Shown in pieces: positions 12,091-49,739 of a stretch of DNA of 64,000 bases (positions within the stretch are counted from its first letter, which is position 1; each line of letters opens with the position of its first letter). The notes beneath the pieces were generated by a model that did not search any database, had not been told where the DNA came from, and was given only the letters and a program-made list of their open reading frames with translations. The position numbers and the translations under genes are program-made. This stretch comes from Alphaproteobacteria bacterium (GTDB lineage Bacteria; Pseudomonadota; Alphaproteobacteria; Rickettsiales; SXRF01): NCBI GenBank assembly GCA_020049775.1, contig JAGVLO010000004.1:186001-250000 (forward strand). Reading direction: 5' to 3'.

Positions 12091-12810
12091 ATGTCCAATA
12101 AGTCACCCCCTGAAGAATATCTGGAGATTGCCGAGAAAGTCCGAACCGGCGAATATTTCCGCGAAGCGCGGGGCATACATGACGTAACCGTTAACGACCC
12201 GATGTCCGAGCGGTATTTCTATATCTGCATTACATCGCTTGCCATCATGATTCTGCTGGTGGCAATGTCGGCGGCAAAGGGTCTTTATCCGTTGAACATC
12301 TCCATCCCGTTTATTTTCAACACGCATGACATCGTCAATGACCTGCCACGCATGAAAACGATGACGTCATTCAAGGGTGAGAGCGCCACCGAAGCGTTGT
12401 TGAGGTTCTTGGTTAAGAACTATGTTACCATGCGTGAAACCTATGAAATAGACACCTTTGACCGCAATATCAACGGTGTTAAGCAACAAAGCTCCAAAGA
12501 CCTGTTTGCCGAATATCAGCAGTTAATAACCCCCAGTAATCCTGAAAGCCCAATAGTCGTGTACCAGCGCCACACACGCCGCGCAATTGTCATCCTCGCC
12601 ACCAAACGCCTAGAGGATCAGGATTTTGGCATGGAAGTGTATTTCGACGTATTTATGGAAACACGAGGCGAAGTAAAAAAATCACGCTGGCAAGCAGATA
12701 TCGCTTTTAGTTATAGCGGCGTTGAGTTAGATGAGAATAAAGAGAAAGTGAAACCCATCAGCTTCGTTGTGACCAAATATCGTTCCAAGCGAATTCAGGA
12801 CATGCAATGA
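12091..12810 (+). CDS. virB8: Type IV secretion system protein VirB8
   Basis: Single N-terminal TM, VirB8-like periplasmic domain (LLRFLVKNYVTMRETY, SFVVTKYRSKRI), overlaps virB9. Confidence 0.85.
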   Translation: MSNKSPPEEYLEIAEKVRTGEYFREARGIHDVTVNDPMSERYFYICITSLAIMILLVAMSAAKGLYPLNISIPFIFNTHDIVNDLPRMKTMTSFKGESATEALLRFLVKNYVTMRETYEIDTFDRNINGVKQQSSKDLFAEYQQLITPSNPESPIVVYQRHTRRAIVILATKRLEDQDFGMEVYFDVFMETRGEVKKSRWQADIAFSYSGVELDENKEKVKPISFVVTKYRSKRIQDMQ

Positions 12811-13604
12811 AAATAAAATTTGCACTAAAATTGTTGACTCTATCACTGGTGGCTTCTTCCTCTCTCAGCCCGGCATATGCCGTCCGTGAGCCTAAACCGG
12901 TGATGCTGGATCACCGCGTGCGCACGGTGATGTACCAAAAAGATGAAGTGTATAAATATACTGGCCATTACCGTTTCCAGACATCCATCGAGTTCGGTCA
13001 GGAAGAGGAAATCAAGACAATATCGATGGGTGACTCCACGGCGTGGATGCTCAACCCGTCCGGCAACCGCCTGTTTCTCAAACCTATAGAGCAGGATGCC
13101 ACTACAAACATGACCATTATCACGAACAGGAGAATATACCTGTTCGAGCTGCATGCCCGTGAAACCGATGACATCGATGACAAGGACATGACATTTATCA
13201 TGCGTTTTCTCTATCCCGACGAGCTAGAAGAAGTTGATGCGCAGAACATTACAAATTATTTGGATTCCGTACCGATTCCTGAGCTGGACGAGAACCCCGA
13301 AAAATATAACTTCAAATACGAAATATCTGGCTCGGACGCAGTTGCCCCCATAAAAATATTTGATGATGGCCAGTTCACCTTCTTCCTGTTCAAGGACCTG
13401 AACGCGGATGTGCCGGCGTTCTACATCACTGACGACAGGGGCAACGAGGCACTTGTCAACTATCGCACGCGTGGCGACTATATTGTACTTGAGCGCGTGT
13501 CAAAGCGTCTTACGTTGCGCCATGGCACCGATATTGTCTGCGTATTTAATAATGGACCGATTCCAGTAGGCCTGCCTGCGGAAGCGCTGGAAGACAGCTT
13601 TTAA
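12807..13604 (+). CDS. virB9: Type IV secretion system protein VirB9/TrbG
   Basis: Signal peptide; GDSTAWMLNPSGNRLFLKPIEQDATTNMTIITNRRIYLFEL; C-terminal FDDGQFTFFLF..LPAFYI-like domain ending RHGTDIVCVFN. Confidence 0.93.
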   Translation: MKIKFALKLLTLSLVASSSLSPAYAVREPKPVMLDHRVRTVMYQKDEVYKYTGHYRFQTSIEFGQEEEIKTISMGDSTAWMLNPSGNRLFLKPIEQDATTNMTIITNRRIYLFELHARETDDIDDKDMTFIMRFLYPDELEEVDAQNITNYLDSVPIPELDENPEKYNFKYEISGSDAVAPIKIFDDGQFTFFLFKDLNADVPAFYITDDRGNEALVNYRTRGDYIVLERVSKRLTLRHGTDIVCVFNNGPIPVGLPAEALEDSF

Positions 13605-47905: not shown

Positions 47906-48265
47906 TTATTTATAAACGGGATTGACTGGCGGCTGCTGAGAGAAGCGTAGTGGCTGTCCTGGTTGGCCTTCGTTGGTAGGAAGAGGATCAGCCTTTCGAT
48001 ATGGCTGGGCCTTCGGCTTATCGCTTAAAACATAGCTGCTGCCGTCATGGTTTATAATAACGCGCTCTTGGTTTGGCGTTGGCTCCACAGGCCCGCCGCT
48101 GGAAAAACTAGAGTTTCTTTTATTGTTCTGGTGTTCATATATCGCCTGTACCAGATTATTGCCACGGTAAAGCTGGTAATCGTTGGCTTGCCGCTCAGCC
48201 ATGACGCTCAGGTAGTACATGCCTACCCCAAACAACACCAACATAACTAATGCCACGATTCTCAT
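47906..48265 (-). CDS. Hypothetical membrane-anchored protein
   Basis: 119 aa, N-terminal TM RIVALVMLVLFGVGMYYLSV, Pro/Gln-rich tail. Confidence 0.6.
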   Translation of the reverse strand: MRIVALVMLVLFGVGMYYLSVMAERQANDYQLYRGNNLVQAIYEHQNNKRNSSFSSGGPVEPTPNQERVIINHDGSSYVLSDKPKAQPYRKADPLPTNEGQPGQPLRFSQQPPVNPVYK

Positions 48266-48286
48266 AAGCTTGATTATACAAAATAA

Positions 48287-48320
48287 AACCCCATGCAGGC
48301 AAGCGCCAGCATGGGGTTTC
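48287..48320 (-). terminator. Intrinsic terminator below the pilin block (possibly bidirectional)
   Basis: AAACCCCATGC-tggcgcttgcct-GCATGGGGTTT then TATTTT on the minus strand; T-rich on both sides. Confidence 0.75.
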
Positions 48321-48344
48321 TAATTTTTTGTTCACGTAGCGAGG

Positions 48345-48686
48345 TTAGCAGGCCTGACCCTGGTTCATCGCTATCATTGCGGCCAGCGAAGCAGCACCGA
48401 ATATCACGGAGATACCAACACCAACTACGACGGCCTGTGTCCAGGTAATACGACCAAGGGTCGCCATGATGCCGAGAATGATAATACCCAAGGTGGCGAT
48501 ACCGCGACCAATCGAGGTGTTAATTACGGCGAGCGGGATGGTACACAGGGCGTTTGACATGCCGTTAGCGCTTGCATAAACATCACCAGCGCCGATGGCT
48601 AAGCAGATGACTGCCACAAAAAACATGTACCTGCTGGCATGTACCACAAATAGTGGCGCAGCAGATGATTTTTTGGTGTTTTTCAT
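48345..48686 (-). CDS. virB2: VirB2/TrbC-family pilin, copy 1
   Basis: Signal peptide ending VYA|SANG; two hydrophobic helices IARG-like GRGIATLGIIILGIMATLGRITWTQAVVVGVGISVIFGAASLAAMI. Confidence 0.88.
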   Translation of the reverse strand: MKNTKKSSAAPLFVVHASRYMFFVAVICLAIGAGDVYASANGMSNALCTIPLAVINTSIGRGIATLGIIILGIMATLGRITWTQAVVVGVGISVIFGAASLAAMIAMNQGQAC

Positions 48687-48759
48687 TGGAGGACTCTCCT
48701 AAAAATAATACATTAATCAATTGGTTGTTTTGTCTTTAAGTAAGTAATGTTTATAACGT

Positions 48760-49101
48760 CTAACATGCCTGACCTTGGTTCATTGCTATCATCGCGGCCA
48801 GTGAAGCAGCGCCAAATATCACCGAAATACCGACGCCCACAACTACTGCTTGCGTCCAAGTAATACGGCCTAATGTCGCCATAACGCCAAGAATAATTAT
48901 ACCAAGAGTCGCGATACCGCGTCCGATCGAGGTGTTAATTACTGCCAGAGGAATTGTACATAGGGCGTTTGACATACCGTTGGCGCTTGCATAAGCGTCT
49001 CCGGCACTAATAGCGAAACAGATTAAGGCCACAAAAAGCATGTATTTTGTAGCATCTCCCCCCAGGAACTGCAGGTTTAGTTGGTTTTTTTTGTTTTTCA
49101 T
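48760..49101 (-). CDS. virB2: VirB2/TrbC-family pilin, copy 2
   Basis: C-terminal about 75 aa identical to copy 1 except one I/V; the start MKNKKNQLNLQ at 49101 makes both copies 113 aa. Confidence 0.88.
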   Translation of the reverse strand: MKNKKNQLNLQFLGGDATKYMLFVALICFAISAGDAYASANGMSNALCTIPLAVINTSIGRGIATLGIIILGVMATLGRITWTQAVVVGVGISVIFGAASLAAMIAMNQGQAC

Positions 49102-49139
49102 CTGAGTATTCCCTAAAAGAGTCATACAAGTTAAGGCGT

Positions 49140-49295
49140 TTAGGCGCAAAGAGAGACACCCGAAGAAGCGATAACCATGATGCTTAGCGTCAAAACGCAC
49201 CACATTGCGGTAAGCGTACCAAACTTATCAAAAAGTTTATTTATGTCAATGCTTTGCACAAGGTCGCTATTCTTTACAGCTGCTGCGTATGTCAT
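49140..49295 (-). CDS. Small single-TM protein upstream of the pilins (51 aa)
   Basis: MTYAAAVKNSDLVQSIDINKLFDKFGTLTAMWCVLTLSIMVIASSGVSLCA; GGGAGAT Shine-Dalgarno; not in the ORF track. Confidence 0.6.
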   Translation of the reverse strand: MTYAAAVKNSDLVQSIDINKLFDKFGTLTAMWCVLTLSIMVIASSGVSLCA

Positions 49296-49739
49296 AACCA
49301 ATCTCCCGTAATTCAAATTTGAGCAAATATTCTAATTGCATATGCAATTTTGTAAAATATCACAGTACCCATGATACCATACAGCCTAAAATGCTATTGT
49401 TAAGATTATATGACAATTTGAGCAAAATTTTACCTATTTAAGGTGCAACAACTATAAAATACAGATTCTTAATAAGTGTGTGATTCCCCTATTCGCTATG
49501 GTGGGCCGCTTCGGGTTGTAGAGCAAAAACTTGTGCTACGGAATAGTTTCAAAACACCAACAAATAGCTTGATTTCATACTATTTCCGGGTACAAATTGG
49601 CCCCTATTTAACTCCAGAATGCGCGGTTTGTCAGCTAAACCGCTGTTTTATAGATTTTTCTTTAACCAGAAACAAGGCTGGCTGTTTCGTAACAAACAAG
49701 GGTTTCGGCGCTGCTGAACCCGTGTAAGGAAATAACATT

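What the first reader, a model, noticed from the sequence alone, without database searches (positions are those of the whole stretch)
48345..49295. Tandem VirB2-like pilin genes with near-invariant mature region but divergent leaders, plus a 51-aa companion
Two adjacent 113-aa minus-strand proteins share about 75 C-terminal residues with a single I/V difference, while their N-terminal leaders differ strongly. At DNA level the shared part carries many synonymous differences (e.g. ctgaccctggttcatcgctatcattgcg versus ctgaccttggttcattgctatcatcgcg). This looks like an old duplication under strong purifying selection on the mature pilin rather than a recent copy. Both predicted mature forms (SANGMSNALC...GQAC) carry one Cys near the start and one as the last residue, so the termini could be linked. 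A 51-aa single-TM ORF with its own Shine-Dalgarno precedes them. Multi-copy VirB2 is known from Rickettsiales-type (rvh) systems.
Basis: partly seen in the sequence, partly recalled or inferred. Interest (0 to 1): 0.8.

Follow-up and report, generated by a model that had tools for sequence, protein, structure and literature searches.

The report
Duplicated pilin genes of rickettsial secretion system
Two neighbouring genes encode almost the same pilus subunit of the well-known Rickettsiales-type (rvh) type IV secretion machine; they are old copies kept nearly identical by selection, which is a good extra example of a known pattern rather than a new kind of system.

Summary
Window 48760-49101(-) and 48345-48686(-) encode two 113-aa VirB2/TrbC pilins (PF04956, E 2.5e-13 and 4.2e-13). 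Residues 39-113 differ only by V/I, while 38 of 74 same-residue codons differ. Mature dS is about 1.5 (dN/dS 0.012, upper limit 0.03); leader dN/dS is about 0.26. This is an old duplication under strong purifying selection; core and leader dS agree, so no recent gene conversion shows. The genome carries the Rickettsiales vir homolog (rvh) hallmark set: seven VirB2, VirB3, two VirB4, five VirB6, two VirB8, two VirB9 (the second VirB8/B9 pair lies in this window, 12091-13604), VirB10, B11, D4. Near-identical VirB2 paralogues recur across the order, and leader variability is general for VirB2, so the pair is an ordinary rvh pilin expansion. A terminal disulfide is plausible but unproven. The 51-aa ORF has a Shine-Dalgarno but no detectable relative in 54 other genomes. 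Structure models were too weak to use.

The parts
48760..49101 (-). VirB2/TrbC-type propilin, upstream copy (113 aa; leader 1-38, predicted mature 39-113)
   Evidence: Pfam PF04956 E 2.5e-13; identical mature region to the second copy but V/I
48345..48686 (-). VirB2/TrbC-type propilin, downstream copy (113 aa)
   Evidence: Pfam PF04956 E 4.2e-13
49140..49295 (-). 51-aa ORF with one hydrophobic stretch, GGGAGA Shine-Dalgarno at 49302-49307; function unknown
   Evidence: no Pfam/NCBIfam match passing a curated cut-off, no convincing relative in 54 other genomes
48285..48320 (-). intrinsic terminator after the second pilin gene (12-bp stem followed by a T-rich tail)
   Evidence: fold of 48270-48345: -29.2 kcal/mol, z -5.4
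12091..12810 (+). second VirB8 (RvhB8-II type)
   Evidence: PF04335 E 1.6e-15
12807..13604 (+). second VirB9 (RvhB9-II type)
   Evidence: PF03524 E 2.1e-61

Best explanation
The two genes are paralogous VirB2 major pilins of a chromosomal Rickettsiales vir homolog (rvh, P-type) type IV secretion system in a large-genome (2.5 Mb) member of the order Rickettsiales. Each is made with a fast-evolving signal peptide that is removed after the A-Y-A / V-Y-A motif; the 75-residue two-helix pilin is inserted in the inner membrane and later polymerised into the pilus/channel of the rvh machine. The mature subunit is held almost invariant because it must pack with itself and its paralogues, while the leader only has to be recognised for export. 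The two genes are co-directional and end at a strong terminator, so they are probably one transcript, perhaps with the 51-aa ORF. The copies most likely serve dosage or separately regulated expression, as shown for Anaplasma VirB2 paralogues, not sequence variation, since the two products are practically identical. Shown here: family, genome context, substitution pattern, terminator-like hairpin. Inferred: processing site, co-transcription, assembly, dosage role, disulfide.
For: PF04956 in both. Seven PF04956 genes over cut-off in the genome; VirB3 + VirB4-I (with ATPase-domain matches) + four VirB6 on the same contig 17-26 kb from the pair; three VirB2 + VirB4-II (no ATPase-domain hit) + VirB6 + VirB8-I + VirB9-I at the start of contig C5, with VirB10-VirB11-VirD4 at the start of contig C6; VirB8-II and VirB9-II in the window. 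These match the published rvh hallmarks: RvhB8, B9, B4 duplication, multicopy B6 (PMC11077975). The order is Rickettsiales: G048, in the same order, carries the exact Rickettsia gltA primer sequence RpCS.877p (identity of the primer from my own knowledge). 52 of 55 genomes searched, own included, have a match. dN/dS 0.012 for the mature part. Anaplasma VirB2 paralogues are differentially expressed between hosts and a paralogue mutant fails only in tick cells (PMC13410764).
Against: No expression or processing data. The AlphaFold models are poor (pLDDT 58 and 63) and the fold search gave no pilin. The two copies differ in third-position GC (0.447 upstream, 0.618 downstream in the mature part, against 0.61 for window genes), which may hint at different histories or expression and adds to apparent dS.
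Confidence: 0.9

Rival explanations
1. The near-identity of the mature regions comes from gene conversion between the two copies rather than from purifying selection.
For: Core homogenisation seems to occur in other genomes of the order: G016 core 60/60 residues identical with dS 0.04 while leaders have dS 1.6; G009 core dS 0.29, leader dS 1.43. The two copies are closer to each other than to the BJ17 homologue, so an ancient conversion cannot be excluded.
Against: In the window pair core dS (1.4-1.5) equals leader dS (1.3-1.4), and 38 of 74 same-residue codons differ: recent conversion would have erased synonymous differences.
Confidence: 0.08
2. The two pilins belong to a conjugative element, not to rvh, and the chromosomal pair is a leftover of it.
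For: The only close homologue found (77% identity) lies with a second VirB2, a MobF relaxase, a TraG/VirD4-like coupling protein, ParA/ParB-like genes and a serine recombinase on a contig of a Planctomycetota MAG that has no detectable VirB4.
Against: In the tree the pair sits inside the order's VirB2 proteins, near copies of the rvh cluster on contig C5 (poorly resolved). Next to the pair are housekeeping genes (aroA/cmk and rpsA as I read them from the sequence) and no relaxase.
Confidence: 0.1
3. One of the two copies is a decaying pseudogene.
For: The upstream copy has lower third-position GC than other genes of the window.
Against: Open frame, own Shine-Dalgarno, and only one conservative amino-acid difference in 75 codons despite dS about 1.5.
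Confidence: 0.02

Closest known systems
VirB2 of the Rickettsiales vir homolog (rvh) T4SS, e.g. the 8-15 VirB2 paralogues of Anaplasma phagocytophilum (PMC3556328), 4-5 in Ehrlichia (PMC7789307), 2-3 in Orientia (PMC10732058)
   Same: Pfam family, two hydrophobic helices, tandem and dispersed copies, split vir clusters, duplicated VirB4/8/9, multiple VirB6, N-terminal cysteine
   Different: Anaplasma copies diverge before the N-terminal cysteine and near the C-terminus; Ehrlichia paralogues share only about 26% identity; this pair is identical through the C-terminus except V/I and differs only in leader and codons
Agrobacterium VirB2 T-pilin (PDB 8exh, 8cue)
   Same: Weak sequence match (E 0.05 and 0.6), N-terminal Cys (C64) at nearly the same aligned place, variable leader and conserved mature region (PMC4074166)
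   Different: Agrobacterium pilin is head-to-tail cyclised by a peptide bond and has a single Cys; here the last residue is Cys
VirB2 of a Planctomycetota MAG mobile element (BJ17, JACTMY010000009.1)
   Same: 77% identity over residues 18-113, same SANGMSN...NQGQAC ends
   Different: Single copy of this type beside a different VirB2, near a MobF relaxase; no VirB4 found in that genome

Membership tests
TrbC/VirB2 pilin family (PF04956) | Profile match above the curated cut-off | tested here: met
   50.5 and 49.8 bits against 27.9
TrbC/VirB2 pilin family (PF04956) | Long signal peptide, then two hydrophobic helices joined by a short loop | tested here: met
   By inspection of the sequence; low-confidence model gives helices 3-38 and 44-71 of the mature part
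TrbC/VirB2 pilin family (PF04956) | Fold like solved VirB2 pilins | tested here: inconclusive
   Model pLDDT 63, fold search without significant hit
Rickettsiales rvh T4SS | Duplicated VirB4, only one with a complete ATPase | tested here: met
   C10 copy matches P-loop_TraG and AAA_10, C5 copy only CagE_TrbE_VirB
Rickettsiales rvh T4SS | Duplicated VirB8 and VirB9 | tested here: met
Rickettsiales rvh T4SS | Multicopy VirB6 with VirB3-VirB4 and split clusters | tested here: met
   Four TrbL genes after VirB3-VirB4-I, a fifth beside VirB4-II
Rickettsiales rvh T4SS | No VirB5 | not tested
   No VirB5 profile was searched; none seen among the cluster genes read
Rickettsiales rvh T4SS | Member of the order Rickettsiales | tested here: met
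   Indirect: a same-order genome carries the Rickettsia gltA primer sequence exactly; genome names are withheld
Cyclic pilins (T-pilin, RP4 TrbC) | Head-to-tail peptide bond of the mature subunit | not testable with these tools
   Needs mass spectrometry

The most novel reading that the evidence does not exclude
Rickettsiales VirB2 pilins are closed by a disulfide between a cysteine near the mature N-terminus and one near the C-terminus, a redox counterpart of the head-to-tail peptide cyclisation of Agrobacterium T-pilin. The pair is conserved across the order (110 of 112 domains in 51 genomes, one of them the BJ17 MAG) and absent from the sampled VirB2/TrbC proteins of other orders of the class.
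Probability: 0.35. Interest if true: 0.6.

Novelty: new member of a known kind. Interest (0 to 1): 0.33.

Why it matters
It confirms a near-complete rvh system with seven pilin genes in a large-genome rickettsial lineage and gives a clean case of purifying selection on the mature pilin. The order-wide two-cysteine signature suggests a simple, testable idea about how rickettsial pilins are stabilised. The apparent homogenisation of pilin cores and the fused pilins in relatives show that VirB2 copy number and layout evolve quickly around a fixed core.

Tried and rejected
Fold search against PDB: no hit below E 1. Homologues of the 51-aa ORF: none convincing. Plasmid collection with the pilin: no match. 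A wrong contig of the BJ17 genome was fetched first and not used. The simple terminator scan missed the hairpin that folding shows.

Full report
Observation. The window holds two co-directional 113-aa ORFs at 48760-49101 and 48345-48686 on the minus strand, each with a Shine-Dalgarno, 73 nt apart, and a 51-aa ORF at 49140-49295 just upstream. From residue 39 to 113 the two proteins differ only by V/I; in residues 1-38 they differ at 19 positions (Fisher p 3e-10). Thirty-eight of 74 same-residue codons in the mature part differ. Nei-Gojobori estimates give mature dS 1.54, dN 0.018, dN/dS 0.012 (bootstrap upper limit 0.029), and leader dS 1.34, dN/dS 0.26. dS is near saturation, so only a lower age bound is meaningful.

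Family. Both match TrbC/VirB2 (PF04956) at about 50 bits against a cut-off of 27.9. The nearest solved structures by sequence are the Agrobacterium VirB2 T-pilus chains, weakly.

Genome. The window is contig C10:186001-250000 of a 2.54-Mb genome. Seven PF04956 genes exceed the cut-off: the pair, three in a row on C5, and one each on C3 and C7. VirB3, VirB4-I with ATPase-domain matches and four VirB6 genes lie at C10:252-261 kb. On C5, three VirB2 genes are followed by VirB4-II without ATPase-domain match, a VirB6, VirB8-I, VirB9-I and an ORF running off the contig end; C6 begins with the TrbI/VirB10 domain, then VirB11 and VirD4. The second VirB8 and VirB9 lie in the window itself at 12091-12810 and 12807-13604. 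Published rvh hallmarks are duplicated RvhB8, B9 and B4, multicopy RvhB6 and no VirB5 (PMC11077975); all but the last were tested and met. The Anaplasma layout of three clusters (PMC3556328) is matched closely.

Order. Genome names are withheld. One same-order genome, G048 (1.2 Mb, one contig), contains the exact 19-base Rickettsia gltA primer RpCS.877p (primer from my own knowledge), so the order is Rickettsiales. Fifty-two of 55 genomes searched, the window's own among them, have a VirB2 match. Large flagellate rickettsial lineages with rvh are described (PMC9352585); this genome carries a flagellar-hook-like gene on C6 as read from the sequence. The family within the order was not determined.

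How the pair compares with other paralogues. I extracted 117 VirB2 domains from 51 genomes (50 of the order plus the BJ17 MAG) and compared within-genome pairs. Near-identical cores are common: G016, G021, G009, G012, G015, G004. In some of these the core has much lower dS than the leader (G016 0.04 against 1.61; G009 0.29 against 1.43), in others leaders are identical while cores or tails differ, a mosaic pattern that looks like gene conversion or unequal recombination. The window pair is different: core and leader have the same high dS, so its protein identity reflects selection. The tree places the pair together (100/80) with the BJ17 homologue as sister (99/93), so duplication or last homogenisation followed that split; the tree rests on 62 columns and is weak overall.

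Mechanism. VirB2 is exported with its leader, cleaved, inserted in the inner membrane and assembled into pilus or channel (PMC2653234). A variable leader and conserved mature part are general for VirB2 (PMC4074166). In Anaplasma, VirB2 paralogues are switched between mammalian and tick cells and a mutant of one fails in tick cells only (PMC13410764). With practically identical products, dosage or separate regulation is the likelier benefit here. A strong hairpin with a T-rich tail follows the second gene; no promoter was distinguished from chance.

Cysteines. Of 112 full-length VirB2 domains from 51 genomes, 110 have a Cys at the start of the core and one near the C-terminus; 80 of 98 unfused proteins have exactly two cysteines in the mature part. 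The search window for the second Cys was generous, and adjacent units of fused ORFs may inflate a few cases. In the VirB2/TrbC proteins recovered from other orders of the class none shows the pair; many are from distant subfamilies, which limits the contrast. Agrobacterium VirB2 has Cys64, and its C64S form keeps near-wild-type transfer (PMC4074166). Al-Khedery et al. mention the N-terminal cysteine in Anaplasma (PMC3556328). I found no paper in the library proposing a terminal disulfide, in a limited search. Models were too poor to measure the distance.

The 51-aa ORF. It has a Shine-Dalgarno and one hydrophobic stretch, but no family match and no convincing relative in 54 other genomes of the order. 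Its codon score favours its frame yet is weaker than typical genes. It is either a lineage-specific small protein or a leader ORF; no function is assigned.

Verdict. The finding is real and its interpretation is right: a tandem VirB2 pair of a standard rvh system. It is a new member of a known kind. The cysteine signature is the part worth following.

Noticed in passing
L106 (G035), L091 (G018), L115 (G049), L099 (G027), L110 (G040), L107 (G037), L069 (G005): Single open reading frames with two or three VirB2 units in a row (G035: 325 aa, three PF04956 stretches, total E 3.2e-35): fused pilins or pilin polyproteins in the order; most units keep their own cysteines.
   Followed up: partly
L118:4267-6099 (G051), L102:1-1812 minus strand (G031): An ORF of over 600 aa directly after VirB4 begins with a VirB2 unit and continues into TrbL/VirB6 (L118: PF04956 E 1.6e-12, PF04610 E 2.5e-6): a VirB2-VirB6 fusion; G031 judged from sequence only.
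   Followed up: partly
L021, L154, L155 (BJ17, JACTMY010000009.1, G243:C5): A Planctomycetota MAG contig carries two rickettsial-type VirB2 genes beside a MobF relaxase nearest to Planctomycetota plasmids (42% identity), a TraG/VirD4-like protein, ParA/ParB-like genes and a serine recombinase; no VirB4 was found in that genome. Horizontal transfer or mis-binning.
   Followed up: partly
L089 (G016), L093 (G021), L026/L078 (G009), L087 (G015), L042 (G012): VirB2 paralogues look mosaic: leader, core and tail show very different synonymous divergence within one pair, as expected of gene conversion.
   Followed up: partly
window 47906-48265 (-): 119-aa ORF after the terminator with an N-terminal hydrophobic segment and no family match above cut-off.
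   Followed up: no
G219 (same class, other order): A 1.6-Mb genome outside the order, as grouped here, has six PF04956 genes: multicopy pilins also occur elsewhere in the class.
   Followed up: no
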